Source: Blepharisma japonicum (Eukaryota; Ciliophora; Heterotrichea; Heterotrichida; Blepharismidae). Taken from it: a DNA stretch of 64,000 nucleotides. The notes under the pieces were generated by a model. That model made no database searches and was not told where the DNA came from. It worked only from the letters and a program-made list of their open reading frames with translations. The position numbers and the translations under genes are program-made. The stretch covers positions 744,001 to 808,000 of the forward strand of contig CATKHK010000004.1 in assembly GCA_949751835.1 (NCBI GenBank), in the 5' to 3' direction. This document shows positions 814 to 61,066 of this stretch, piece after piece (positions within the stretch are counted from its first letter, which is position 1; the number at the start of each line of letters is the position of its first letter).

Positions 814-1530
814 CTAATATTTGGATAAATAGTGCCTGAGAGGGTAATAGTCAAGAGGCCCAGGGGTGTCTGCTTTAGCAAAATCAATTCTTTTGCCACC
901 CTGAGGAATGACAGCTTTAGGGGATTTTTTTCTTAGATATTCTGGGTCAGTTTCATAAGACCCAGGACCAGGGCTGATTTCTCTGATATCGTTAAGCCTT
1001 CTTCTTTCTCTATTAAATGTGGCTGCACCTGCTGGATAAGAAAAATCTGAAAGCAAGTTTAAATCTTCCCCTTTCAATGAGCTGAAAACGCTGCTTTCAT
1101 TTTTCTTTCTTTTTAAATTCGCATAAGACAGCCTGTATTTCCCTAAATCATATTCGCCTGAACTCATTGGCTTATAAGATGACACTTTTATAGGCTTCTT
1201 TTCAGCTTTAGGAGAGTTATTCAAGTCAATTGTTGCTATTTTTGGCTGTTCTAACCTTTCGTATGAGTTATAGGGAGATGTAAAAGGTGAATTCAAGGTA
1301 TTTGCGGTCGTCAGTTCTATCGACTGGCTCCAAATGACGTTAATCATGTTTTCAATGATCACCTTTAAATTTTCTTTGAAGCTTTCTTTCTGGACGTTCG
1401 GCTTATTTTCATACACTTTGGATAAAAGGCTGAAAATTGCGTCATAGTGCCCATCGGTTTCTAGTTCTTTTAAAGTCTGCATGATACTTGCATAACCATT
1501 AAGCTGGGAATATAACTTAGTTTTCGACAT
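814..1530 (-). CDS. STPGR (sperm-tail PG-rich repeat) protein
   Basis: 238 residues, ending at TAG. The C-terminal third has two PG-rich repeats of the SHIPPO/ODF3 type (SPGPGSYETD near residue 190 and TPGPLDYYP near residue 225). In this family such repeats mark proteins associated with axonemal or cortical microtubules. The N-terminal 90 residues look helical and have no recognisable domain. The start codon is only 24 nt downstream of the SECIS-like hairpin of the thioredoxin reductase gene on the same strand, so its promoter must overlap that gene's 3' UTR. A second STPGR gene lies at 56.0 kb. Confidence 0.75.
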   Translation of the reverse strand: MSKTKLYSQLNGYASIMQTLKELETDGHYDAIFSLLSKVYENKPNVQKESFKENLKVIIENMINVIWSQSIELTTANTLNSPFTSPYNSYERLEQPKIATIDLNNSPKAEKKPIKVSSYKPMSSGEYDLGKYRLSYANLKRKKNESSVFSSLKGEDLNLLSDFSYPAGAATFNRERRRLNDIREISPGPGSYETDPEYLRKKSPKAVIPQGGKRIDFAKADTPGPLDYYPLRHYLSKY

Positions 1531-1554: not shown

Positions 1555-1614
1555 AAAAAGCTCAGACATTAATTCCTCTATGAGGTTTGAAAAATGCCGT
1601 CACATGCTTTTTTT
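1555..1614 (-). promoter_or_regulatory. SECIS-like hairpin in the 3' UTR of thioredoxin reductase
   Basis: Read on the minus strand: a lower helix AAAAAGC (1606-1612) pairs with GCTTTTT (1555-1561). Then come a short internal loop and the quartet TGAC (1599-1602) opposite TGA (1562-1564). An upper stem starts GGCATT opposite AATGTC (G-U wobble allowed). An AAA (1586-1588) sits ten bases above the quartet. A mini-helix CCTC/GAGG with an ATA loop (1575-1585) closes the top. This is the order of parts of a type II eukaryotic SECIS: helix, K-turn quartet, about 11 bp, unpaired AA, mini-stem. It begins 22 nt past the TGA of the reductase, shorter than the spacing known for mammalian SECIS elements. 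Confidence 0.72.
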
Positions 1615-1630
1615 CGATCAATCTTTTGAT

Positions 1631-3244
1631 CTAGCCTCAGCATCCGGTCTTTTCTGCAGTCCTTCCTGATCTCTTGGTGACTTCTATTTTTGTCAATTCT
1701 TCTGCACAAGTTGGATGAATTCCAACTGTCTGATCGAGGATTTCTTTTGTAAGGCCACACTTCATAGCAGCTGCGAAGCCTTGTAAAACTTCTCCTGCGT
1801 TGGGTCCTAAATAGTGTAATCCTATAACTTTTTCATTTTCAAGCTTGTTTGTCACTATTTTTCCGAAGCAATATTTTCCTTCTCTTGACTCTAAATAATT
1901 CCACTCCAGTGGCTTGAACATTGAATGGTACACTTCTACGTTATCGTCTCCATAAATTTCTATGGCTTTTTCCTCACTAAGTCCACAGCATCCATACTCA
2001 AGAGGTGTGAAAACTGTTGTAGGGACATTTACATAGTCCATTATATGTGTAGACCCTCCAAATAGCCTTTTAGCTAAATAGTTTCCTGCTTGAATTGCAG
2101 ATGGGGTAAGCTCAGGTCTTCCATCTGATACGTCGCCTATTGAAAAAATATGAGGCACACTTGATCTGTCTCCTTCATCTACAATGATTTTATTATTTCT
2201 AGGGTTTATAATAATTCCTGCATTCTCAGGCTTTATTCCCTTCGTGAGGGCTATACGGCCAATTGCTAAAAATACGGCTCCATAAATTTCTACTTTTGTT
2301 TCTCCGTTTTGCTCGTATTCTACCCTTACTTTCCCATCTTCAGTCTTAGAAAACTGGATAGGGACTGCGCCTTTTATGAAGATCATGCCTAAGCCTTCCA
2401 TGAAGCTGCCTATTTTTTCAGCGATCTCTTGGTCAAACCCTCTAAGCAAAATAGACCTGACCATAATAGTGACATGTTTTCCTAACGAATGCAAAAATCC
2501 GGCACATTCTAAACTGATATAGGATGCTCCGATACAAAGAATGTTATCAGGAACACTTTTCATTGAAAATAAATCATCACTTGTAAAGCAGCACTCTTCT
2601 GCTCCAGGGTATCCTCCATAAGAAGGACGCAATCCTACTGCTACAACAAAATTCTCACTTGTGACGTTTTTCACGAATTTTCCTGTTTTATCATGCAGTG
2701 CAACTGTGTGACTATCTACAAAACTTGCATAATGATTGAAATAAGTAATTTCTTTATCAATTAATTGGACTCGGTACCCCCAATTGAGAACTTGTATGTG
2801 TTTTTGTACATTAGCTACCATTCTCTCCCAGTTATGAGGAACATTTGCTGGCAATTCCCATCCGCATTCTCTTTGGTCGCCTTGGTAGTCTCCAAAGATT
2901 CCGGCAAAATGCATAAGCTTTTTTGGGATGCAGCCAACATTTACGCATGTCCCTCCTAGTCCCCAAGTTGTGCCGATTGGCGTAGGCGGCACAAAGTCAG
3001 CAAGTGCTACTTTTGCGCCTAAATTGGCAGCTTCCTTGGCACATGATAGACCTCCTGATCCACCACCGATCACAAACAGATCAAATTGATATGGGGATTT
3101 TCGGACTGGAACTTCCTCTTCTCCGCCTCCAGGATCTAGCATATTAAAGGACATAACTGGAGCTTCCTCTTCTTGGCCACCGAATCCGACCATATCCATA
3201 ACCATCTCCATCTCTTCGCCTTGGTCGGGCTGATTGCTCTCCAT
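1631..3244 (-). CDS. TXNRD: thioredoxin reductase, probable selenoprotein (C-terminal Gly-Cys-Sec-Gly)
   Basis: 537 residues if TGA at 1637-1639 is decoded. It transfers electrons from NADPH via FAD to thioredoxin. It has an N-terminal acidic, Met-rich extension of about 50 residues, an FAD-binding GGGSGG near residue 60, the redox disulfide CVNVGC followed by IPKKLM, an NAD-binding segment, and the dimer-interface HPTCAEEL. The frame ends Gly-Cys-TGA-Gly-TAG, the hallmark of large selenoprotein thioredoxin reductases. All five tryptophans in the body are TGG, so the only TGA falls exactly at the Sec site. A SECIS-like hairpin follows at once. No introns. Reading the TGA as Trp would give Gly-Cys-Trp-Gly, which is not a known active centre. 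Confidence 0.93.
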
Positions 3245-25304: not shown

Positions 25305-26024
25305 ATGGCATTTCGCTTAGCACGACTTTTTAGAACTTTCAGCTTTTCTTACCCTCTGCACAGACTCCCGCCACTTCCATATCAGCCAGTCCGATTTTTC
25401 GCTAGCAAAAAGAAGGGAAAAGATAATGACAAGAAAGGTAAAGGAAAGAATAAAAATAATCAATCTGACGAAGAAGTTGACGTAGAATTCGACATTGAGC
25501 CTATAAAAAGAGACATGGCAAAACCATTAAAACATTTAGAAGAATGCTTACAAAAAGTCACTATTGCTAGAGGTGACCCAAGGATTTTTGATGAGCTCTA
25601 TGTGACTTCTAAGCGCGATAATTTGTCAAATCTAGCCCAAGTTGCTATGAGAAATGCTAGTGAAGTTACAATAAAACCATTTGATGCTACAAATACAGAT
25701 GCAATAATTACAGCTATACAAGCTGCAAATCTGAATGTTAATTGCAGAAAAGAAGGCTCTGGGACTATTTCAGTGACCATTCCAAAGCCTACTAAAGAGA
25801 TGAGAAATGAACTTATAAAACAAGCTAAACAGTACTTAGAAGAGACCAAAAATTCAATTAGGAATCGCCGCACAAATGCTATAAGCCAAGTCAAAGAAAT
25901 CACAGGGATTGGAGAAGATGACATAAAAAACTTGCAAAAAGAAGTCCAAAAAATCCATGACAGCACTATAAAAAAAGCTGAAGAAATGCTTGCGGCTAAA
26001 GAAAAAGCTATAAATCAAGGATAA
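25305..26024 (+). CDS. MRRF: mitochondrial ribosome recycling factor
   Basis: 239 residues, ending at TAA. The N-terminus (MAFRLARLFRTFSFSYP) is a typical presequence, followed by a Lys-rich linker. The RRF domain occupies about residues 65-239, with MRNASEVTIKPFDATN-type and IPKPTKEMRNELIKQAKQ-type blocks, and ends in the long helical arm. It splits post-termination mitoribosomes together with EF-G2. No introns, no in-frame TGA. It converges on the RWD-GTPase gene, with 14 nt between the stops. Confidence 0.92.
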   Translation: MAFRLARLFRTFSFSYPLHRLPPLPYQPVRFFASKKKGKDNDKKGKGKNKNNQSDEEVDVEFDIEPIKRDMAKPLKHLEECLQKVTIARGDPRIFDELYVTSKRDNLSNLAQVAMRNASEVTIKPFDATNTDAIITAIQAANLNVNCRKEGSGTISVTIPKPTKEMRNELIKQAKQYLEETKNSIRNRRTNAISQVKEITGIGEDDIKNLQKEVQKIHDSTIKKAEEMLAAKEKAINQG

Positions 26025-26038
26025 ACTTAATAAATAAT

Positions 26039-28093
26039 CTACCTATCTTCTTCAGCCTCTGTATCTTCTACGTCTACAACTTTTCCTAACCCAATTGTCT
26101 TTCCTCTATCCCTTAAAATGAATTTTCCCATCTGATTGTTTTTTGAGCTTAATTCTATAGCTATTTCATCATCTATTCTTATCCTCATAATTACCCTTTG
26201 GTTAGAATACGCATAAGGAATTCTCAGCTTTTTTCCTCTTTTTTCATCAATTTTGGCTATAACTTCAGAAATTTCGCATTCCTCAAATGCAGCGTGGGTA
26301 TGAATTAAGCATCGGTAGCCTGAAGAAATCAATGGTTTGTCATCTAAAAGGTCTAAAAGCTGTACATCTCCAATGATTTCGTCTGTAGATTTAGAGTAAT
26401 CATGGATATCACATATAATAAAGCCACGCTGGACATTGATTTCTTCTGAGAGTTTTAGCTTGATTTTGACGACTTCTCCAGAATTAGCATACATAAGGTA
26501 ATTCTCGTCAGGGCCAATAATATCAATGATTTCTCCTTTTGCTCTTATAGGCATGACCATCACTTTTAAGCCTTTTACTACCTGCCCGCTTTCAATTCTT
26601 CCAAAAACAGTTATGCCTTGATCCTTTGTCCTGTCTAAAATAGGTATCCTTAGAGTATCTCCATTTGCTCTTTCAGGGATATTTAAAGATTCAAGGCTCT
26701 GAAAAAGAGTCGGGCCTTGATATCAATCATTTATTTTTTCTACAATATTTAGTCCTGAAATCCCTGCAGTCGGAATCCAGCTTAAATTTTCAGGCTCATA
26801 TTTACATTTTTCTATCAAAAATTGAGACATTGCAGACTTTATTTGGGAAAAGCGTTCCTGAGACCAATTTACGGAGGGGTCGTCCATTTTGTTGATAAGG
26901 ATAATTAATTTGTTAATTCCAAGCCATTTTGCGATATAGGAATGTTCTCGGGTTTGCCCAGATTTGTCGAAGTCATTTTCAAACTCTTGGATTCTGGCTG
27001 AAATTACAAGGACGGCATAATCAGAGTGAATGGCACCTTCTATCATGTTGGGAATAAAAGCTTTGTGACCTGGTGCGTCAAGGATAGAAAGACGCTTGGT
27101 AGAAGTTTCAATAGAAGCTTTGCCAACTTCGATAGTAAGATCACGCTGTCGCTCTTCTGGGTTTTGGTCCATTATATAAGCGGGGCATCAGGCGTCTCGG
27201 CCATATTCTTTTGCTTCTTGCTCATAGGCTTCTATGGTTCTTTGATCAATATTTCCAGTCATTAATAATAAATTCCCACAAATAGTAGACTTGCCTGAAT
27301 CTAAATGTCCTATAAATAAAACATTAATAGCTGGCTTTGGACTTGGCTCAGCTAATTCTGAGGCTTCTTTCAATTTCAAAATCAGAGCTTCTTTATCAAT
27401 TGGCTTTTCAGTGACTATTTTTGGTGTCCTTTTGGCTTTTGTCACAACTTTTTCTTCTTCAACTTCTTGATTTTCATTGACTTCTTTTATCTCAGCCCCA
27501 ATTTTCAACATTTTAAAGCCAAGTTTTGGCTTTGGTTTAGGAGGTGCTTTCTTTTTATTTCTGTTTTTTCTATATTCTTTTCTTTCAAAATCACTAAAAC
27601 TGATGCATGTTAAGTCCTGCACATTTCTTGCAATAGGCTTTGATTTGTCTTTTGATTTTTCCTTGTATTTTCTTCTATATCTTGATTTTTCTTTGGTTTT
27701 TTCTTTCGGTTTTGCAGGACTCTCAATGGGTTCAGCTTCGCTAGCAGGCTTATAGCTGTTTAGTCATTCTCTAGTGCCATCTATAATATCAAACATCATA
27801 GGATTTCCTAAGTCTCGGTCTATTATATCTTTGACAATTTGTGTTAGAGATGAAAGAGCTTTTGCATCCAGCTTGTAGAGAGAAACTAATGAGTATTTTG
27901 GAGGCTTTTGAGGATATGTAGGGGTTAAGTCTATGGACAGCTTGACCCCACATGGGAATTCTTCATTAGAATCAGACTCTATTGTGATATCAAAAGAGGT
28001 GTCATTTATCTTCGTAATGATATCTGGATATATCAGTTGGAGAGTGTCATACTCTTCAAGCTGCTCTTGATTCATCTTTATTTGTAAAAACAA
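26039..28093 (-). CDS. RWD domain fused to an eRF3-like translational GTPase
   Basis: 684 residues (678 from the in-frame ATG at 28073-28075) in one uninterrupted frame ending at TAG, with three TGA codons read as Trp. Residues about 8-115 are an RWD domain (EEYDTLQLIYPD, TPTYPQKPPKYSL, DLGNPMMFDIIDGTREWL). A Lys-rich linker follows, then the G domain: G1 GHLDSGKST, G3 DAPGHK, G4 NKMDDPSVNWSQERF, and domains 2-3 ending GKFILRDRGKTIGLGKV. The NKMDD and DRGKT forms favour eRF3 over HBS1 or EF1A, but the usual eRF3 N-terminus is absent. RWD domains elsewhere (GCN2, IMPACT, GIR2, RNF14) dock on GCN1 at stalled ribosomes. The fusion is clear in the sequence; its role is inferred. Confidence 0.85.
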
Positions 28094-34452: not shown

Positions 34453-34704
34453 ATAATTATTAAATTTAAGGATTAATTATCATGAGTTTACTTAGAGACT
34501 TTGAGTGTTAATTTGCTCGATGCAAGAGGACAATTACATTTTGAAACAGCTTGAAGGTATTGAAAATGAAGTGAAAGTTACTTAGATTTGGATAACTGAA
34601 GGCTTAAAAGATAAATATTAATTATTTTTATTAAAATTTAACATGAATTCCCTTCAAAAATTAATTTTTTTCGATTGCTGGCAAATTGATATATATTTTT
34701 AATT

Positions 34705-35652
34705 ATGGAAATTCGAATCTGTGGAAAATATAGGTTAGGAAGAAAAATAGGTAACGGGAGTTTCGGGGAAATTTATCTAGGCACAAATATCCAAACTAAT
34801 GAAGAAGTCGCAATAAAATTAGAAAACGTAAAAACTCGCCATCCTCAATTATTATATGAGTCAAGGATATATCGCATCATTCAAGGAGGTCCAGGAATTC
34901 CAGCAATCCACTGATTTGGGGTTGAAGGAGAATTTAATGTCCTTATAATTGATTTACTTGGCCCATCTCTTGAAGATTTATTTAATTATTGCCAAAGACG
35001 TTTTTCGCTCAAAACAACCTTAATGATTGCTGACCAAATGATCTCACGCATCGAATACATGCATGCTAAAAATTTCCTACATAGAGATGTGAAGCCAGAC
35101 AACTTTTTAATCGGACTCGGCCGAAAATGCAATTTATTACACATAATTGATTTTGGATTAGCCAAAAAATACAGAGATCCGAAGACAAACCAGCATATTC
35201 AATATGTTGAAGGGAAAAATCTAACCGGAACTGCTAGATATGCATCAATAAATACCCATATGGGAATTGAGCAGTCCCGAAGAGACGATTTAGAAGGGTT
35301 GGGATATGTTTTTATGTATTTTTTAAGAGGATCTTTACCTTGACAAGGACTAGCAGGGTCTAATAAAAAGGAAAAATATGATAGAATATTAGAAAGAAAA
35401 GTTGGGACAAGTACAGAAGCTTTATGCAGAGGGTTTCCTGTAGAATTCCAAACTTATATCACTTATTGTAAATCTTTGGGATTTGAAGATAGGCCTGATT
35501 ATCCTTATATCAAAAGGCTGTTTAAAGATTTGTATAATAAAGAATTCAGGGAGGTGGATTTTATTTTTGATTGAATTTTGATAGGACCGAAGAAAAGAAA
35601 GGAAGTGGAAGAAGAGAAAAAAAGTGAAAATATAGGGCAAAGTAAAAAATAG
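34705..35652 (+). CDS. casein kinase 1 family Ser/Thr kinase
   Basis: 315 residues, ending at TAG, with TGA codons read as Trp inside conserved kinase subdomains (for example IPAIHWFG and LPWQGL). Seen in order: Gly loop [18 protein letters not shown] lysine, [14 protein letters not shown], catalytic [22 protein letters not shown] (DFG), the CK1 hallmark GTARYASIN, and [16 protein letters not shown]. The short, charged C-terminal tail is rich in Lys and Glu. A complete CK1 of minimal size; ciliates have many paralogues. Confidence 0.94.
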
Positions 35653-41489: not shown

Positions 41490-41561
41490 TCAGAGATAGT
41501 GTAATGGTAGCACAGCTGAGTTCCAAAGCAGCTAATTCAGGTTCAAGTCCTGATCTCTGAC
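41490..41561 (+). tRNA. tRNA-like gene with 4-bp anticodon stem (anticodon UCC or CCA)
   Basis: Perfect 7-bp acceptor (TCAGAGA/TCTCTGA), box A TAGTGTAATGG, a 4-bp D stem, and a T arm TCAGG-TTCAAGT-CCTGA containing box B GGTTCAAGTCC. The anticodon arm is odd: GCTG (41515-41518) pairs with CAGC (41529-41532), leaving ten bases, AGTTCCAAAG, in the loop. If A and G at its ends stack as a mismatch, the loop is 8 nt. The anticodon is then UCC (Gly) at 41522-41524 or CCA (Trp) at 41523-41525. The last base is C, unusual for either identity. It may be functional or a decayed copy. Confidence 0.65.
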
Positions 41562-41749: not shown

Positions 41750-42949
41750 ATGATGTTTCTTTATCTCTGCATTTCATTAGCTTTTGCATCCATTTCAATC
41801 GATCTCCACTCAAAATTCTCCAACAAAGAAGAGATGATACAAGACTGAATTATAAGAAAATCCAAACTTTCCCTTAAAGGCTCTTCAACAAAGCTCATAA
41901 ACCCTGACAATGTATTTTCTATTTAGATGATTTATTATGGTGCATTCTCAATAGGGACTCCTCCACAGACCTTTACTTGCCAGATTGACACTGGAAGTCT
42001 AGTTCTTTGGGTTGTAGAAAAAGGCTGCACTCAATGCCATAAATGCAATGACACCTTTAACAGTGCAGCTTCCTCTTCATTTGTTTCAACTAACAAAGCA
42101 GGTGAATTGTTTTACGGAAAAGGCTATGCAAACGGTACAATAGTTTCAGACGTTTTAAGTGCTGGTGATAAAACCTCATTTGCAGTCAACGGCTTTAAAT
42201 TTCTTTTGGTAAATTATGAAGAGGATAACGACAACTTCGAAAGTGATGGACTCATTGGATTTTCTTTAGATAATGCAGAACCAGGGTACATTTCCTTTGT
42301 GACTGCTTTAAAAAATCAAGGCAAAATAGCAAATAGACAATTTGCCTTATATTTGAATTTTGAAGGAGGAGATATTTCTTCAAATCTCATGATAGACGGC
42401 TACGACTTAAAGAAATACTCGACCGATAGCAAGTTTACCTATATTCCAACAGCTACTGATATTAATGGCTATTGGACCGTTTTGTGTAATAAAGTCACAA
42501 TGGATGGCACTCAAATTGATTTTAGCGTTCCAGCTGTTATTGATTCAGGCTCTAGCTTTATAATGGCTCCAGAAGAAATAGTAAGCAAGCTAAGATTGGC
42601 ATTCGAAAGCGAGTATGGATGCTCTATGAATCAAGGAGGAGATTTGATATGCTCTTGCAAGGCGCCGAAAGGGAAAAAATACCTAGATTTGATTTTTGAG
42701 TTAAATGGGAAAACGTTTGAAATAAACCCTGAAGATTATATGATGGAAATTGGTGACGAAAAATGTGCTGTTGCGATTGATGGTAACGGTAATGATGATT
42801 TCTGGATCTTAGGCGACGTTTTTATGAGAAAACATTACATCACCTTTGATATGGACAATAATAGAATCGGCTTTGCAAAGGCAAGGACCAGCTCAGCGTG
42901 GGTTTCTTACTTATGGAAACTCATGATAATTATTACTATAAATTTATAA
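41750..42949 (+). CDS. secreted pepsin-like aspartic protease A
   Basis: 394 residues: exon 1 41750-41911, a 15-nt intron 41912-41926, then exon 2 to TAA. One TGA is read as Trp in exon 1. The signal peptide MMFLYLCISFAFAS precedes a propeptide-like segment of about 40 residues. The mature enzyme opens YYGAFSIGTPPQTF with the first catalytic CQIDTGS and the second VIDSGSSF. The flap Tyr region is not the usual one. The C-terminal end FWILGDVFMRKHYITFDMDNNRIGFAKA is typical of family A1. The last 18 residues are hydrophobic. It converges on a cysteine-rich gene with 3 nt between stops. Confidence 0.93.
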
Positions 42950-42952
42950 TTA

Positions 42953-44131
42953 TTAACTTCATAAAAATAATAAGCTTGATAATGCTAAAAATCCTGCAGC
43001 GTCTACTTTCTCATATGCTTTTTTGGCTGCATAATATTCAGGGTATAATGCAGCCACAATGCACTTGTCAGCTCCTTGCAGGTCTGTAAAATAATCAACA
43101 TACAGTGCATAATAGCTTAAAATCGCATAATCGTCTTTATTTCAATAATTTTGGATGCAGGGCAAAGCAAACCTTCGGCCTGTATTGCAGTTTTGGACCT
43201 CTTTGCTATTAAGCCACTTTTGAAGCTGTTTTCTGTATCTAACAAATTCGGAATCTCCATGGTGCAGTGAGCAGTATCCATAAGCGTCTTCATTAGATCC
43301 ACATTCGCAAGTCCCATTCTGGAAATATCCAGTAGTCTTGTCTACTTGTGAAGGACAGAAATCAAAAGCTTCTGTATTGAAGCACCTCATAGGAGTAGAA
43401 TGCAATGATTTCAGTTCTCCTAAACAAATAGTATCATCATCCTCTGTTACTGCACAGTATCCAGAGCTGCAAAGTCGGCTTTTATTATCTATACAAGCCT
43501 CATCTTTAATTGTCTCACCAGGCTGGATTGACCCATATTCGACGCATAAATTGTAATAAGTATCATTAGGATGCGATATCTGGCAGCCAGCGTTATATAC
43601 ACAACTTGTGTCAGCTTCACAACCAAACTGACCAATTTGAAGCAGAGGGACACATGCTCCGTTGCTTTCTTCTCCTCCTTGGCATCATTCTCCATTTTTG
43701 CACTCATAGTCATAAGTGCAATTGGGATAAGATTTCCCTGGGCTGCAAGTGCCAGTTGTAGTATCACAGCCTGCTGAAAAATCTGGATTGCATTGGGAAT
43801 TTAACTTGCATTTTTCCATAGGCCAGAGCCAATCTTGAGGCACGGGCTGACAAGTAAATAAGTTGGTAGTGGTGTTTTTGGTACAGTAGTCGCCAGATAT
43901 ACAGCTGCTTACGTATACTGTATCATAGTCTACTTGATAAGTAGCGCATTGGTCTTTAGGCACAAGTCCTTTAGAGTCGCATTTAAATTTCTTGCAGCCT
44001 ACAGTTTCTTCTTTTAGAGAATTCAATGGAAAAAGGGTATTATGAAGAGAAAGCTCATGGATTGGGGAAAACTTAGAAAGGACAAGGGCAGGACCGAGGA
44101 GAGCAATTAAGCTGTAGAATAGAATAATCAT
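42953..44131 (-). CDS. secreted cysteine-rich protein A
   Basis: 392 residues, ending at TAA, with TGA codons read as Trp (NGEWCQGG, QNYWNKDD and near the end). A signal peptide (MIILFYSLIALLGPALVLS) is followed by about 30 Cys in loose repeats such as WPMEKCKLNSQCNP, CTYDYECKNGEW, CVYNAGC and CSSGYC. The C-terminal third has CGSNEDAYGYCSLHHGD and a hydrophobic end (FLALSSLLFL) that may be a GPI or membrane signal. I know no named family for it, though disulfide-rich surface proteins of this style are common in ciliates. It is always next to a pepsin-like protease in this window. Confidence 0.85.
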
Positions 44132-44642
44132 TATTTTGGAAATATGGATATAGAAATTATCGATTGTAGATTATTGTAAAAAAGTGGGAAATTTATAAAG
44201 AAAGAGTAGATGGGATTTTATATGTATAATTTAAAAGATTTTTGATTTTCTTAATAATTTGAGCTTAATAGCTTTTTTTAAGAAGTTTATTGCAAGTCTG
44301 TAAATTGGTCTTGCTTTGAAAGCAAGCTGCCAGATATGATCAGCCATTTTGGGTCTAGCAAAATAGAATCGATCTATTTATTGCTTGACATTTTATTATT
44401 TGAATTCAAGCATTCTAAAAAACAAAGAGTTATTTGCTAACTTTATATAATAACCTTTATGTTGCTAAGCCAAAATTCCAGCCCAAGCTCAGATCTCTAG
44501 TTATTTACAGATATAATTAATTAATATTTCATTCCTGTTCTTATCGAATATTTTACCAAAAAATCTACAATAAAACATTCTCTCATTTGACGAAAAATTA
44601 TTGATCATTATTTATAGCCATATTAATATTTTAGCATCTGCA
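44132..44642. other. intergenic region
   Basis: 5' flanks of cysteine-rich gene A and protease B. AT-rich, with a few partial matches to the flank upstream of protease A (near ACAATAAAAT); no gene. Confidence 0.6.
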
Positions 44643-46044
44643 ATGAGGCTGCTTTATCTCCTATTTCCTTTTGTTCTCGCATCTATTTCCATTGATCTTC
44701 ATTCAAAATACTCTAGCAAAGAAGAAATGTTTCAAGGCTGAATATCAAAAAAATCCAAGCGATTTCTTAAAGACCCATCTGCAAAGATTTCAAACATGAA
44801 CAACGTAATTTGCATTTAGCTTCTTTATTATGCTGATATATTTATAGGAACCCCTCCACAGAACTTTACTTGCCAAATTGATACCGGAAGCTTACGTCTT
44901 TGGGTTGACAACAAACACTGCAGTTGATGCCATAAATGCAACAATACTTTCAACCCTGCCGCTTCTTCAACATTTCTTAACACTAATCACTCTGAATATA
45001 CAGCATGATATCTAAATTGTTCTACTATCGAGTATCGAGTTTAGGCCCTTGCTCGGCAGGAGCTACCTTCGCAGTATTGCAAAATGTGAACCGACAAGTA
45101 AGCAGGGAGGCTTTAAGTGTGGAGATTATCCTTAGGAATTACAGTAGGCTTTTTTATAAATTTAATAAAAATAAGAATCTTTTTGGTACAACGGCTGTGA
45201 AATGTTAGGAAATATAGTTCAGGACAATGTTAGAATCGGCGATCAAGCTAATATTGAAGTTGATAAATTTAAGTTTTTTTTAGTATATAATGAAGATGAC
45301 AATGAAGAACCTGAAAGTGACGGAGTCATTGGATTTGCACTGGATAACAGGGATCCAGAGTTCATTTCCTTTGTCACTGCTTTAAAAAATAAAGCAGAAA
45401 TAGAGAACCGACAGTTTGCCTTATATTTGAATTTTGAAGGTGGGGAAATTTCTTCTAATCTGATGATAGATGGTTATGATTTGCAAAAATACTCAACTGA
45501 AAGCAAATTCACGTATATCCCAACAGCTACAAATTTTTACGGCTTTTGGACGCTTTTATGCAATAAAGTTATGCTTGGCGACCTTCTAATGGATTTTGAT
45601 GTTCCAGCTGTGATTGATTCTGGATCAAGTCTAATATTAGGTCCCCAAGTAGTTGTGGGTAACATAACTTTGGAATTTAAAAGTAAGTTTGGTTGTTCAA
45701 CCAACAAAGGGGGAAATTTAGTATGCCCCTGCAAGTCACCGAAAGGAAAAACTTACCCAGATTTGATTTTTGAATTAAATGAGAAGGCATTCCAAATACA
45801 TCCAGAAGATTATATGGCTGAGCTGGGAGATGGAATATGTTATATTGGTATTGAAGTTAATGATATTTTTGATGATGACGATCTTGAGGGGTGATTTTGG
45901 GTTTTAGGGGATGCTTTCTTAAGAAAATATTATACAACTTTTGATATGGATAATCAAAAAATTGGTTTTGCCAAAGCAAAGACTAGTTCAGCATGGATTT
46001 CTTACTTATGGAAATTCATGATAATTATTTCCTTAAATTTATAG
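44643..46044 (+). pseudogene. pepsin-like aspartic protease B, interrupted by a 180-bp insertion
   Basis: Exon 1 44643-44804 and a 15-nt intron 44805-44819 match copy A. The frame then covers [14 protein letters not shown] and IDTGSLRLW and is interrupted after about 44 codons of the second exon by foreign DNA (45006-45190). Beyond it the protein resumes (NGCEMLGNIVQDNVRIG) to the second catalytic VIDSGSSLIL and TAG 46042-46044. Both active-site Asp remain. Either a pseudogene or a gene carrying an unexcised germline segment. Its cysteine-rich partner is reduced to a remnant at 46045-46090. Confidence 0.75.
45006..45190. other. foreign insertion in protease B
   Basis: About 180 bp absent from copies A and C, with stops in all frames that matter and a visibly less AT-rich core (for example GCTCGGCAGGAGCTACC). 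TA dinucleotides occur at both junction regions, compatible with a TA-bounded IES. No transposon ends or RNA family recognised. Confidence 0.55.
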
Positions 46045-46631
46045 TTATTAATCATAAAAATATAATTGGCTTGATAATAATTTTAACTTCATTTTTCCTA
46101 ATTATTATTGAGCATTAACTTATCAATTGCATGGCTGGAAATTACTCATAGTCATAATCGAGCATATAATTCATAAAACATCCATTTTAGTAACATCAAG
46201 AATTTATCCACAATAACTTTTCTGCATTGCATTTAACTAAAATTTTCTTCTAATTGTCAAAAAACAATTCTAAGGCTTTTAAATTGCATGTTTAGCCTAT
46301 TTCTGAAGATATTTATTAATCATTGATTTAATTAAATTTTTTTGATAATTTATTTCTCTTTTCCCCTGCAGCTAACTGTTAAAATACCATACAAAGCTGA
46401 GATAATTAATAGGCAGATTAGTGAATTCTCAAAACAGCTAATTTATATCAAAATCCGATCTTTAAAATTTAATGAGATTTATGATGATCTTTTACTCTGA
46501 TGTATTCAATTTTTCCTTATTTAATCAGTAAATGGTTTTATTCAAAAAATCTATAAAATAAAAATCAATTGCAAAATTTTTGATTCCCAAATAATTACTA
46601 AATTATGGTCATTATAATTATTTAAAATACA
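46045..46631. other. intergenic region with a remnant of a cysteine-rich gene end
   Basis: The first 45 bp (through GGCTTGATAATA) match the 3' ends of cysteine-rich genes A and E, minus strand, directly after the protease stop. The rest is AT-rich with no gene. Confidence 0.55.
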
Positions 46632-47774
46632 ATGATGCTCATTTATCTTTGCATTTCGTTTGTTTTTGCATCTATTTCAATTGATCTTCATTCAAGATTC
46701 TCTAGTAAAGAGGAGATGGTAAAAGACTGAGTATCAAGAAGATCCAATCTTTCCTTTCAAGGATCGTCAACGGGGCTTACAAATATAGACAATGTATTTT
46801 CTACCTAGGCTATTTATTATGGTGAAATATCAATTGGAACCCCACCTCAACCTTTTAAATGCCAAATTGATACTGGAAGCTTGGCGCTTTGGGTTGTAGA
46901 ATTTAATTGCACTGATACTCCTAAAGGTACTCATACTTTTAACCCTGATGCCTCTACTACTTTTGTTCCGACTTATAAACAATTCAGTCAACATTTCAAT
47001 AATACCTATATTAGCGGTGTGCTAGTAAATGATACTATAGCAATTGGCGATGGACCGAAAATTTCAGCCAGCAGCTTTACATTTGCTTTGATTGAAGATG
47101 GTGACTTCAATAGTACCCTTACAGTTGATGGAGTCATTGGGCTTTCACTCGATGATTCATGAAATTATATTTCCCTTCTAACTGCTTTAAAAAAACAAGG
47201 AAAAATAGAAAACCGGCAATTTGCCTTATATTTGAATTTTGAAGGTGGAGAAATTTCTTCCAATCTAATGATAGATGGCTACGACTTAAAGAAATACTCA
47301 ACTGAGAAGAAGTTTACTTACATCCCAACAGCTACAGATCTTAAAGGTTATTGAACACTTTTATGCAATAAAGTTATGCTTGGAGACACTCTAATTGATT
47401 TTAGTGTGCCAGCTGTAATTGATTCAGGATCAAGCTTTATATTAGGTCCCACAAGAGGGCTAAAAAGTATATCTAAAGTTTTTCGTAAACTTGGGTGCTC
47501 AGTAGATAATAATTATAACATTGCTTGTCTTTGCAAGCCACCTGAAGGGAAAGTTTACCCAGATTTGATTTTTGACTTAACTGGAGAAAAATTTGAAATG
47601 AGCCCGGAAGATTATATGGGCAACTCAGGGAATGGACACTGTTTTATTGCTATTGGAATAAATGACGACAACTTCTGGGCATTAGGTGATGTTTTTATGA
47701 GAAAATATTACATAAATTTTGATATGGACAATAAAAATATTGGGTTCGCAAAAGCAAGGAAAACCTCAGATTAA
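46632..47774 (+). CDS. secreted pepsin-like aspartic protease C
   Basis: 375 residues: exon 1 46632-46793, 15-nt intron 46794-46808, exon 2 to TAA. TGA codons at three places are read as Trp (VKDWVSR, DDSWNY, KGYWTL). The signal peptide MMLIYLCISFVFAS, the propeptide, YYGEISIGTPPQPF, both catalytic triplets IDTGS and VIDSGSS, and FWALGDVFMRKYYINFD are all present. It lacks the hydrophobic C-terminal tail of copies A and B. It converges on cysteine-rich gene E (51 nt between stops). Confidence 0.93.
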
Positions 47775-47825
47775 GCATCTTAGCTAAGTAAACTCATTCT
47801 AATTAGCCCTTAAATTTAATTATTG

Positions 47826-48986
47826 TTAGCCATATAAAAAGAATAAGCTTGATAATACTAAAAAGCTTCCAAAATTTACTTTGAAGTATTCTTTCTTAAT
47901 CTCCATATACTGAGGATATATAGCTGAAATAACGCATTTGTCTGCATCTTGCAATGCTGCATAGTTGCTAATATAGCCAGCATAATAGCTTAAAGTTGCA
48001 TAGTCGTCTTTATTCCAAAAATCTTGAGCGCAGGATAAGGCAAACCTTCTGCCTGTATTGCAATTTTTGATAGCTTCACTATTAAGTCATTTTCTTAGTT
48101 GTTTTTTATATTTAACATATAAAGGATCTCCAAAATGTAGGGAGCAGTAGCCATAAGCATTTTCGTTCAATCCACATCTACAAGTTTCATTTTTGTAAAA
48201 CCCAGTAATTTCATCTACTTCTGATGGGCAAAAATTAAAGGCCCCATCTGTAGAGTAGCATCTCATAGGAGGAGATTTCAGTGATTTTAATTCTCCTAAA
48301 CAATAATAGTTGCCATCCCCAGCTTTTGCGCAATATCCGGAGCTGCATAGCATGCTTTGATTATCATCGCACGAGTTATGCCTAATTCTCTCCCCAGGTT
48401 GGATTGACCAATAAGGGACGCACAAGTTATAAAAGCCATCATTATTATCTTCAATCATGCAGCCTGCATTATAAACGCAGCTTGCATCAGACTTGCATCC
48501 AAATTGGCCAATCTCAAGCAAAGGTACACAAGAATAGCTTTGGCACCATTCTCCTTTAGAACACTGATAATTATAAGAACATTCAGGATATTCTTTCCCT
48601 GCGCTGCAGATGCCATTTACACAGCCTGCTGAGTAGCGTGGAATACATTGGGTAGATAATTTACATTTTTCCATAGGCCAGCTATATGATTGAAGAATGG
48701 ACTCGCATTCATATAATTCAGATGTATCGTTAAAAGTGCAATAATTTCCTTCTATGCAATTACCAACATAAACAGTATCATCATCTTCTTGGTAAACAGC
48801 GCATTGATTAGTAGGCACCAATTTTTTAGTAGCACATTTTCATTTCATGCAGCCTACAGTCTCATCATGTTTTTTTGATATCGACAGGATGTTTGTTTCT
48901 TGGAAATTGGATTCCATTGGGACAAATTGAGATAAGACAAGTGTAGGGCTGAGAAGGAGAACAAAATTGAAGGCTCTAATTACCAT
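47826..48986 (-). CDS. secreted cysteine-rich protein E
   Basis: 386 residues from the ATG at 48984-48986, where the signal peptide MVIRAFNFVLLLSPTLVLS begins, to TAA. TGA codons are read as Trp (CMKWKC and LRKWLN). Cys positions track those of gene A: WPMEKCKLSTQCIP, CSYNYQCSKGEWC, CVYNAGC, CSSGYC, NENAYGYCSLHFGD, LSCAQDFWNKDDY, and a hydrophobic end FLVLSSLFFL. It is the partner of protease C. An orphan 3' fragment of this gene is found at 34 kb on the other strand. Confidence 0.85.
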
Positions 48987-49616
48987 TATTGATGAAAAGG
49001 TATGAATATGGATATGATCATTTGTAGATAATGGGTAAGAATGCTTATATGTAAAAGTCAAATTTTTTCGGATGCATAAATTTGAAGATTTTTGAATTTC
49101 TTACTATAGGTAACTTTAATTAATTTCCATGCACCTTCAATTTAGCTTTGTTTACGAGATAAGATCAATAATATTGTATCTATAATTAAATATGAATTTA
49201 AAGTTTGAATTTTATGAAAGTTTAAGCTAATCAGGTAAATTTCTATTATTTATGCTTATTTATATCTTAAATTGCAAATATTCCATTCTATCATTAAAAA
49301 AGTTCATTAATTGTGTGAACCGAGCATTGGCAACGAAAACAAATAGCTAAATAAAATAATTGCTCAGAACTGATCAAATATTGAGTTTAATAAAACTATT
49401 TTAACATGTATTATTTCTTTTACTATTATTCATTTTAAGTTTGATTTTACTTGAGGTTCACTTTTATAGTAAATTATATTAGACAATTATATAAAATCTA
49501 ATTAAACAGTCTGCTAAATTTTTAAAATAATTTGAAGGGGCATAAACAAATAGAAAATAAGAATATTTGCTATGATTGCTATATAATTTCCCCTTTATAT
49601 CACAAAATTTCAAAAA
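48987..49616. other. AT-rich intergenic region between divergent genes
   Basis: 5' flanks of cysteine-rich gene E and the coiled-coil gene. No gene, RNA or repeat that I can support. Confidence 0.65.
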
Positions 49617-52768: not shown

Positions 52769-53521
52769 TTAATTAATTGGGGGAGGAAGTGAAGGACGTA
52801 TAGGTGGTGGAGGCGGTGGTGGTGGAAATGATCTTGACTGACTTGGTATTGGTGGAGGCATAGAATTTTGAGGGACCTGCGGAGCTTTATAAGCTCCAGT
52901 CCACATAGGTCTATTATAAGGCCGATTAGCCGCTAAAATCCTTTCAGCCATAGACCCAAATTTTTCTCTTTTCGAGTCTCTTTTATACGCATAAGTCACT
53001 GTAATTGGCCTATTACACAAGAATTGTCCATTCATAGACTGTATCGCCCCATCTGAGCTTTCAAAATTATCAAAACTTACAAATCCATACCTATGTGAAG
53101 TCCCAGTCATATTATCTCTATTAATCCTCGCTGAAATCACATTTCCAAATATCGAAAAAGTCTCGAAAAGCTTTTTTTCGTCCACTTCTTCATCTAAGTT
53201 TCCCACAAAAATATTTGCCCCAATGTCTTGGCTCTTTTTGTCCTGAGAAGCCTTATTAGCTTTTATAGGTTTTCCATATAATTTGATCATATGCATAATT
53301 TTGATAGCATAATCCGCGTCTTCTTCATTGCGAAATTCTACGAAGCCGTATCCTTGATGCTCATTAGAGGTCTTGTCTCGAGGCATGTGGACGTTTACAA
53401 CAGGGCCGCATTGGATGAAAAGTTCTCATAAGAGCTCTTCATGGACTCTTTGGTCTAGATTTCCTACATAAATTGTCGCATCTTGATTCCTCTCATAAAT
53501 TGGTGTTAGATTAGAAGTCAT
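52769..53521 (-). CDS. SF3B4: splicing factor 3B subunit 4
   Basis: 250 residues from the ATG at 53519-53521 to TAA, with one TGA read as Trp in EELLWELF. Two RRM domains: RNP2 ATIYVGNLD and RNP1 HQGYGFVEF in the first, [11 protein letters not shown] and HRYGFVSF in the second. They are followed by [10 protein letters not shown] and a Pro-rich tail, as in SF3B4/Hsh49 of the U2 snRNP. It matters here because the spliceosome must handle 15-nt introns. Its ATG is only 2 nt after the stop of the upstream gene on the same strand. Confidence 0.92.
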
Positions 53522-59731: not shown

Positions 59732-61066
59732 TTAAAGTGAAACCCCGCTTAAAAATGAATTGATTATATGCCATGCTTGTGGACGCTTCCACTGTGGAAC
59801 CATATGTCCTCCTCCCTTCACCAGTACCCATGTAAGCCCTTCATACTCAGTATAAAACCCAGCCACTTGATCATCTACATATCATGAAGTATAGGGCTGC
59901 TTCACATTCAGATTTAAGCCAGTTATTCACTCTCGTGTACCAATAAAAGGAGTAGAACCATCAGCATCTCCTGAATAAATCCATATCCGTAAGCCAGAAC
60001 GAATAAGAAAAGGATATAAAAAGACTGACCCATGCTGATAATCTGTAATATAGTCAAGGAAAATGCAAAATGCCCAAGGCTGGACATTCTCTGGAATATT
60101 GAACGCTTTCCTTACTGTTTCGTTTAAAAAATAGTCATAAGCGCCCTCCCAAGCTGCACATGGTGGAATTATTCCTGGAGCTGCCATTGAATCTAATATA
60201 ACTCTGAGGAAAATATTGTTATCCTTTTGAGCTCTTGTATCATTTTGATATATGCAAGGCCCATAAATATTGTAAAAATTCAAATTATTGAGAAGCTCGC
60301 TTTGTATATAATTTGTGTCGTTTCCACAGGCTTCGCCATCTCATTCATTGAAATTGTCGCAGTCATTTACTAATTTATAATACCAGTTATAGTCAATTAA
60401 TGCATGAGTTCAGAGGAGTTTCATCAACGCTGGGGTAAAATCATATGTAAAATCTGTAGCTGGGCCTCCTATTATCATTCCTTTGAGGTTAATATAATGA
60501 GGACTATAGTTGTTGTACATTAGAATGTTATAGGCTAAGTAAGGTAAATACATTCCTGCATAGCTTTCCCCTGATATATAAAATTCATGATTTCTATACT
60601 CAGGAAATTTTCTAAAAAATTGTAAAATGGCAAGAAGATTATCATGTGCAACAATTTGATCATCGGTGTTGTTATTGGAAAGGTCTCCCAAAATAGAGAA
60701 GCCAACTCCTGCTGGTGATTCAAGGTATAAGACGCTGGCATTGGTATTCCAAGACCACTGATTCTTGAAAAGAGTTGTGCCTTCGTCAGGAAATACATAA
60801 GGACCGTGCTCATAAGCGAATCCGTCTAATGAAGAGCAGCCTGGACCTCCATTAAGTCAGAGCAGCAAAGGATCTATAGATGGGTTATTTTGGCTTTCAA
60901 CAAGAACATAGTGTAATGATTTTCCGTTAGAATTAGGGATATCAAGGTATCCAGAATACGTATCAAAATTAGGAGGAGAGTCTGATGGAAGTCCTGGCTG
61001 ATTTTTGACTAAATCAGCTAAAGGTGCACCTAAAACTGTTTCCACTAAAATTAGGAAACTCCACAT
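59732..61066 (-). CDS. serine carboxypeptidase (S10)
   Basis: 444 residues, ending at TAA, with at least five TGA codons read as Trp, among them the family motif LLLWLNGGPGCSS. A signal peptide (MWSFLILVETVLGAP) leads into the S10 fold: the oxyanion-hole segment above, catalytic Ser in ISGESYAGMYLP, Asp in YSGDADGSTPF, His in KGGGHMVPQWKRP. A lysosome- or food-vacuole-type acid peptidase that trims C-terminal residues. A decayed tandem copy lies upstream (higher coordinates). Confidence 0.95.

What the first reader, a model, noticed from the sequence alone, without database searches (positions are those of the whole stretch)
1555..1650. UGA appears to have two meanings: Sec in thioredoxin reductase, Trp elsewhere
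The enzyme ends Gly-Cys-TGA-Gly-TAG, the exact selenocysteine active-site tail of large thioredoxin reductases. Its Trp residues are all TGG, so the only TGA is at the Sec position. The 3' UTR folds into helix, TGAC/TGA quartet, upper stem, AAA and a CCTC/GAGG mini-stem, the plan of a type II SECIS. Many other genes here use TGA for Trp. Dual UGA use for Cys and Sec is established in Euplotes; a Trp/Sec pair in one nucleus would be a different case. The hairpin begins only 22 nt past the TGA, shorter than the known mammalian limit.
Basis: partly seen in the sequence, partly recalled or inferred. Interest (0 to 1): 0.92.

Follow-up and report, generated by a model that had tools for sequence, protein, structure and literature searches.

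The report
Selenocysteine enzyme where UGA means tryptophan
A ciliate gene for the antioxidant enzyme thioredoxin reductase very likely inserts the rare amino acid selenocysteine at a codon that neighbouring genes read as tryptophan, helped by an RNA hairpin just behind it; this double use of one codon looks real here but has already been reported in a few other protists.

Summary
The gene at 3244..1631 (-) is a full-length thioredoxin reductase ending Gly-Cys-UGA-Gly-UAG; that UGA (1639-1637) is its only one. The other 36 ORFs read under code 4 hold 51 in-frame UGAs. Of 14 that align to solved homologues, 8 sit on Trp and none on Cys; of 11 that align to window paralogues, 5 face UGG. So UGA is Trp in this nucleus. 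The 100 nt after the stop hold a type-II SECIS-like element (1612-1555): 1 of 37 ORF 3' flanks and 11 of 20,000 shuffles match its grammar. Sec at residue 536 is the best explanation. Against it: no Rfam SECIS match, ordinary fold energy, a G at the quartet's last base, and no genome held, so the Sec machinery is untested. The novelty claim fails: Swart et al. 2016 describe Trp/stop/Sec UGA in Condylostoma and Parduczia, with thioredoxin reductase and a SECIS shortly after the UGA; Amoebophrya and Blastocrithidia add Trp/Sec. UGA=Trp, 15-nt introns and 67% AT point to Blepharisma. Verdict: real, probably functional, new member of a known kind.

The parts
1631..3244 (-). thioredoxin reductase (large, Sec type), 537 aa, one uninterrupted ORF
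   Evidence: TIGR01438 661.2 bits; PDB 1h6v 594.3 bits over residues 51-537; Pyr_redox_2 and Pyr_redox_dim
1637..1639 (-). in-frame UGA, codon 536, predicted selenocysteine
   Evidence: only TGA of the ORF; aligns to the Sec/Cys column of TrxR tails
1631..1636 (-). last Gly codon and UAG stop
   Evidence: direct reading
1555..1612 (-). predicted type-II SECIS element: helix I, UGAC/UGAG quartet, helix II, AAA, mini-stem CCUC-AUA-GAGG
   Evidence: pairs and coordinates; grammar match 1 of 37 flanks, 11 of 20000 shuffles; no Rfam SECIS match
1616..1631 (-). 6-bp hairpin starting 5 nt after the UGA; chance not excluded
   Evidence: 2452 of 20000 shuffles, and 8 of 37 ORF 3' flanks, have a hairpin of at least 6 bp starting within 12 nt
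814..1530 (-). next gene on the same strand; its ATG follows 100 nt after the TrxR stop, so the SECIS fills a short gap
   Evidence: no Pfam match at 1e-4
34675..35652 (+). casein kinase 1; codons 80, 223, 300 are TGA on conserved Trp (a fourth TGA, codon 5, lies upstream of the aligned part and perhaps of the true start)
   Evidence: Trp in 3sv0 and 1cki
26039..28075 (-). eRF3-like GTPase with N-terminal RWD domain; two TGA on conserved Trp, a third not covered
59732..61066 (-). serine carboxypeptidase; TGA at the LWLNGGPGCSS Trp, four others facing Y, Y, F, K
52769..53521 (-). SF3B4-like splicing factor; its one TGA on a conserved Trp
41912..41926 (+). 15-nt intron in aspartic protease A; paralogues B (44805) and C (46794) carry one at the same protein position

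Best explanation
In this Blepharisma-like ciliate nucleus UGA is an ordinary Trp codon, and in the thioredoxin reductase mRNA one UGA is redefined as selenocysteine. Proposed steps: a type-II SECIS in the very short 3' UTR folds and binds SBP2 through its kink-turn core (UGAC/UGAG); SBP2 brings eEFSec with Sec-tRNA(Sec); with the UGA in the A site the SECIS stands just ahead of the ribosome, so Sec-tRNA out-competes the Trp-tRNA that reads UGA elsewhere; Gly and UAG follow. The codon, tail, UGA=Trp usage and SECIS sequence features are shown here; SBP2, eEFSec, tRNA(Sec), transcription of the element and the competition are inferred from known eukaryotic Sec decoding.
For: GCUG tail on an otherwise well conserved large TrxR. 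UGA is Trp elsewhere: of 16 TGA in six ORFs, 14 are covered by the best PDB hit: Trp 8, Tyr 2, Phe 1, Lys 1, Thr 1, Ser 1, Cys 0 (read by eye); in window paralogues 11 sites: TGG 5, TGA 2 (one reciprocal pair), Tyr 2, Phe 1, Glu 1. 0 of 52 TGA codons lie in a GT-N11-AG 15-mer. SECIS grammar: 1 of 37 flanks; 11 of 20000 shuffles. 11 nt between quartet UGA and AAA. Precedent in a heterotrich and a karyorelict with the same gene and short spacing.
Against: No Rfam SECIS match at the gathering score or at E up to 10; automated search is known to miss some, since 11 ciliate Sec-GPx had no detectable SECIS in a SECISearch3 study. Fold z-score only -0.95. The SECIS reading (-10.7 kcal/mol) is 1.7 above the MFE (-12.4), which pairs part of the quartet. 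The 3' quartet UGAG departs from KGAW. 34 nt from UGA to core is below the 51 nt cited as the minimum for Sec insertion. Sec machinery not testable. No relative of the gene found to test conservation. No transcript data.
Confidence: 0.88

Rival explanations
1. UGA536 is now read as Trp: Sec decoding has been lost or never reaches this codon, and the SECIS-like hairpin is chance or a relic.
For: UGA is Trp at other sites; weak energy and no Rfam match. SECIS elements without Sec are reported in nine ciliate GPx.
Against: GCWG would lose the catalytic Sec/Cys (inference from TrxR chemistry); the rest of the enzyme is intact; the grammar match is rare; the other Trp codons of the gene are all TGG, though 5 are few.
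Confidence: 0.06
2. Mixed product (overlaps with the best explanation): both Sec-tRNA and Trp-tRNA decode UGA536, the ratio set by selenium supply; failed Sec insertion then gives full-length inactive enzyme rather than a truncated one.
For: Follows from UGA=Trp plus a SECIS; no direct evidence.
Against: No quantitative data; the SECIS may be efficient enough to exclude Trp. B. japonicum eRF1 is reported to recognise all three stop codons in assays, so release could compete as well; odds lowered from 0.25 for this.
Confidence: 0.2
3. UGA536 is read as Cys.
For: Cys replaces Sec in some TrxR (recalled); UGA=Cys exists in Euplotes; one review sentence assigns UGA=Cys to Blepharisma, another in the same review UGA=Trp.
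Against: No Cys at any of 22 distinct TGA sites aligned to PDB homologues or window paralogues.
Confidence: 0.02

Closest known systems
Condylostoma magnum and Parduczia sp. thioredoxin reductase (Swart et al. 2016, PMC4967479; passages and legends)
   Same: Same gene, Sec UGA as penultimate sense codon, UGA also Trp, SECIS shortly after the UGA; C. magnum has a tRNA-Sec gene
   Different: There UGA is also a stop and UAA/UAG also encode Gln; here ORFs were called with code 4, so UGA as a stop was not tested independently
Blepharisma japonicum TrxR transcript MMETSP1395 in Fig. S2E of the same paper; B. stoltei genome (PMC9942806, passages)
   Same: UGA=Trp; 66% AT and mostly 15-16 bp introns in B. 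stoltei; TrxR homologue aligned for B. japonicum
   Different: The legend states the SECIS position only for C. magnum and Parduczia; the figure was not seen, so whether Sec in Blepharisma is claimed is unknown. B. japonicum UGA usage 0.059% and UAA 91% of stops against 51 of 14,784 codons (0.34%) and 29 of 37 here
Blastocrithidia SelTryp/SelK/SelT (PMC12153298, passages)
   Same: UGA=Trp and predicted Sec in one nucleus, both within SelTryp
   Different: Trypanosomatid; other selenoproteins; UAA/UAG also sense
Amoebophrya sp. ex Karlodinium veneficum SelT/SelM/SelO (PMC6394959, passages)
   Same: UGA=Trp with predicted Sec sites; SECIS found for selT; tRNA-Sec
   Different: Syndinean dinoflagellate; apart from tRNA-Sec no tRNA for UGA found
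Euplotes crassus TR1/TR2 (PMC3737529, passages)
   Same: Ciliate TrxR with UGA for two amino acids and position-restricted Sec insertion
   Different: Other meaning is Cys; stop-to-SECIS-core distance 138 and 124 nt against 28 nt here (1630-1603)

Membership tests
Large Sec-containing thioredoxin reductase | Full-length TrxR with FAD/NADPH and dimerisation domains | tested here: met
   TIGR01438 661.2 bits over its whole length; Pfam domains
Large Sec-containing thioredoxin reductase | N-terminal CVNVGC redox pair | tested here: met
   GGTCVNVGC identical in 1h6v
Large Sec-containing thioredoxin reductase | C-terminal Gly-Cys-Sec-Gly with Sec codon UGA | tested here: met
   GC-UGA-G-UAG; the amino acid itself is not shown
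Eukaryotic type-II SECIS | 5' UGAN / 3' KGAW quartet (form taken from PMC7409322) | tested here: inconclusive
   5' UGAC fits; 3' UGAG fits K=U but has G at W
Eukaryotic type-II SECIS | helices I, II and mini-helix III with unpaired AA(A) 10-13 nt after the quartet UGA (spacing range recalled) | tested here: met
   6, 6 and 4 pairs; 11 nt
Eukaryotic type-II SECIS | match to the Rfam covariance model | tested here: not met
   no SECIS family at E up to 10; no ciliate positive control was at hand, so the model's sensitivity is unknown
Eukaryotic type-II SECIS | conservation or covariation in relatives | not testable with these tools
   no related loci found
Eukaryotic Sec decoding | tRNA-Sec, eEFSec, SBP2, SecS/PSTK, SPS2 in the genome | not testable with these tools
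   no genome held; none seen in the window among tRNA, Rfam and Pfam results (30 of 37 ORFs given to Pfam)
Nuclear code with UGA=Trp | TGA at conserved Trp in several nuclear genes | tested here: met
   8 of 14 sites, in 5 of 6 genes tested; 5 of 11 paralogue sites face TGG
Blepharisma (heterotrich) | 15-nt introns, about 66% AT, UGA=Trp, UAA/UAG stops | tested here: met
   same-position 15-nt introns in three paralogues; GC 0.297-0.379 per 4 kb; 29 TAA and 8 TAG stops under code 4. Genus is inferred, species not determined

The most novel reading that the evidence does not exclude
A Se-gated missense switch: because UGA is sense (Trp) in this nucleus, Sec competes mainly with a Trp-tRNA and not with release factor, so selenium shortage turns the C-terminus from GCUG to GCWG and yields full-length but inactive TrxR. 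A SECIS locked 24-34 nt behind the codon, at the edge of the ribosome's footprint, would make Sec insertion possible only at that one codon, much as bacterial SECIS elements act next to their UGA.
Probability: 0.2. Interest if true: 0.6.

Novelty: new member of a known kind. Interest (0 to 1): 0.36.

Why it matters
It is a clean example of one codon with two amino-acid meanings separated only by an adjacent RNA element. It suggests a culturable ciliate genus in which Sec-versus-Trp competition, and the lower limit of UGA-SECIS spacing, could be measured directly. As a code phenomenon it has precedents.

Tried and rejected
Whole-genome search for tRNA-Sec: no genome held. Related loci of TrxR in viral contigs and genome contigs: 7 and 21 pattern matches, none confirmed. 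Rfam for SECIS: none. Energy z-score as evidence: not significant. Window-wide grammar scan: at helix I>=5, helix II>=6 there are 6 sites on both strands including this one, against a mean of 0.85 per strand in 40 shuffles; by the ORF table the other five are 62725 and 54704 (-) and 23385 (+) in sense coding sequence, 21235 (+) antisense to an ORF, and 45198 (+), which begins 4 nt before ORF 45202..46044 and runs into it. At the loosest setting there are 17 sites (mean 4.4 per strand). A UGA-proximal hairpin as a redefinition element: unsupported (2452 of 20000 shuffles; 8 of 37 flanks). Intron-length spectrum as evidence for 15-nt introns: flat, so I rely on the three paralogues. That TGA 536 is intronic: not in a GT-N11-AG 15-mer, and no GT stands in the 13 nt before it. 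UGA=Cys: rejected (no Cys at 22 distinct aligned sites). ORF set: one search listed 45 ORFs of at least 150 aa; I kept 37 and dropped 8 that overlap others; some TGA near the 5' ends of TTG-started ORFs, and ORFs without homologues, may not be coding.

Full report
What is there. The minus-strand ORF 3244..1631 encodes 537 residues with a single in-frame TGA at codon 536 (1639-1637), followed by Gly and TAG. It scores 661.2 bits against TIGR01438 over the whole profile and aligns to thioredoxin reductase 1h6v from residue 51 to the last residue, 594.3 bits (U was passed to the program as C). GGTCVNVGC is identical and HPTCAE faces HPVCAE. Its five Trp codons are all TGG.

What UGA means in the other genes. 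One search listed 45 code-4 ORFs of at least 150 aa; I read 37 and dropped 8 that overlap others. The 37 have 14,784 sense codons, 52 TGA including the TrxR one, 125 TGG, and end 29 times with TAA and 8 times with TAG; 26 of 37 hold a TGA. Since code 4 was assumed, the absence of TGA stops is not independent evidence. Independent evidence comes from homologues. I gave six ORFs besides TrxR to PDB searches (casein kinase 1, serine carboxypeptidase, eRF3-like, SF3B4-like, O-methyltransferase, aspartic protease). They hold 16 TGA; reading the best hit by eye, 14 are covered: Trp 8, Tyr 2, Phe 1, Lys 1, Thr 1, Ser 1, Cys 0. In window paralogues 11 TGA sites align: TGG 5, TGA 2 (one reciprocal pair), Tyr 2, Phe 1, Glu 1. 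Three sites are in both sets, so 22 are distinct. None of the 52 TGA lies in a GT-N11-AG 15-mer (16-mers were not tested). UGA is therefore Trp in this nucleus.

Which organism. Three aspartic-protease paralogues each have a 15-nt intron (41912, 44805, 46794) at the same protein position, before a YY...IGTPPQ block. GC is 0.297-0.379 per 4 kb, mean 0.33. The B. stoltei genome paper (PMC9942806, passages) gives 66% AT, predominantly 15 and 16 bp introns and UGA=Trp. Blepharisma is my inference; the species is open. UGA makes up 0.34% of codons here (51 of 14,784) against 0.059% given for B. japonicum transcripts; a different species, expression bias or a few spurious ORFs could explain this.

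The SECIS. After the TAG there are 100 nt before the next ATG on the same strand. In it lie helix I (1612-1607 with 1560-1555), UGAC (1602-1599), helix II (1598-1593 with 1570-1565), AAA (1588-1586), a mini-stem CCUC/GAGG with an AUA loop, and UGAG (1564-1561). Between the quartet UGA and AAA are 11 nt; from the Sec codon to helix I 24 nt and to the quartet 34 nt. With a grammar of TGAN, NGAN, helix II of at least 6, helix I of at least 5 and AA 10-13 nt on, this flank is the only match among 37 ORF 3' flanks; 11 of 20,000 dinucleotide shuffles of the flank match, 5 with helix I of 6, 109 with the loosest setting. The grammar was written with the element in view, so these figures are optimistic. 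Against it: Rfam has no SECIS match even at E 10, the fold energy is ordinary, the best-energy structure pairs into the quartet and is 1.7 kcal/mol better than the SECIS reading (the parameters do not credit the non-Watson-Crick quartet), and the 3' quartet ends in G where KGAW is the canonical form (PMC7409322, passages). The same paper reports 11 ciliate Sec-GPx without a detectable SECIS, so a missed hit by a program is not rare in ciliates.

How it works. Most likely as in other eukaryotes: SBP2 on the kink-turn core, eEFSec, Sec-tRNA. Two things differ in setting. First, the main competitor of Sec-tRNA should be a Trp-tRNA, so failure gives GCWG and not a truncated protein (inference). 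Second, the spacing is short. A minimum of 51 nt for Sec insertion is cited in PMC3737529 (passages), and Euplotes TrxR has 138 and 124 nt from stop to core; here stop to core is 28 nt. Swart et al. made the same kind of remark on Condylostoma and Parduczia. Ribosome footprints ending 11-12 nt downstream of a stop codon in C. magnum would leave this SECIS just outside a ribosome that holds the UGA; that is inference. A paper on Euplotes (PMC10235951, passages) suggests that a SECIS may bring the stop codon near the poly(A) tail; the same could hold here. Short gaps between genes are a simple reason for the closeness.

What is known. The dual meaning Trp/Sec is in print for C. magnum and Parduczia, Amoebophrya and Blastocrithidia (whose discussion also credits ciliates and a dinoflagellate with Cys/Sec or Trp/Sec). 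For Blepharisma itself I found no explicit Sec statement in the passages seen: searches 'Blepharisma + selenocysteine' (4 papers), 'Blepharisma + selenoprotein' (1 paper) and 'heterotrich + selenocysteine' (4 papers) give six distinct papers, and I saw passages of all six (PMC4967479, PMC6879139, PMC10553269, PMC4695839, PMC7409322, PMC12153298). The two Blepharisma genome papers, looked at only for code, tRNA and intron terms, also show none in those passages. A B. japonicum TrxR is in the alignment of Swart Fig. S2E, a figure I could not see. The library lacks most subscription papers. Hence: new member of a known kind.

Noticed in passing
41490-41561 (+): A tRNA gene (49.5 bits, Rfam tRNA) whose anticodon loop looks too long: 8 nt with an A-G mismatch, or 10 nt on a 5-bp stem; ARAGORN prints a four-base anticodon 'tcca'. 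A/B-box-like sequences and a T run are present (motifs recalled). Could be a frameshift-type tRNA, an odd Gly(UCC) or Trp(CCA) tRNA, or a pseudogene.
   Followed up: partly
28075..26039 (-): An eRF3-family GTPase (best PDB hit eRF3a, 360.8 bits; Hbs1 261.4 bits) with an N-terminal RWD domain (65.8 bits, residues 3-105) in one uninterrupted ORF. A search for 'RWD domain' with 'eRF3' gave 3 papers whose listings concern other subjects; none was opened. Notable in an organism with changed stop-codon use.
   Followed up: partly
1616-1631 (-): Perfect 6-bp hairpin starting 5 nt after the Sec UGA and overlapping the last base of the UAG; position like a Sec redefinition element (recalled), but common by chance.
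   Followed up: yes
41912-47774 (+) and 42953-49061 (-): A cluster of duplicated genes in the order protease, Cys-rich, protease, protease, Cys-rich: three aspartic proteases on + and two cysteine-rich proteins on -. The cysteine-rich pair has no Pfam match at 1e-4.
   Followed up: partly
25305-26024 (+): A bacterial-type ribosome recycling factor gene (Pfam RRF 136.4 bits), probably organellar (inference), directly beside the eRF3-like gene.
   Followed up: no
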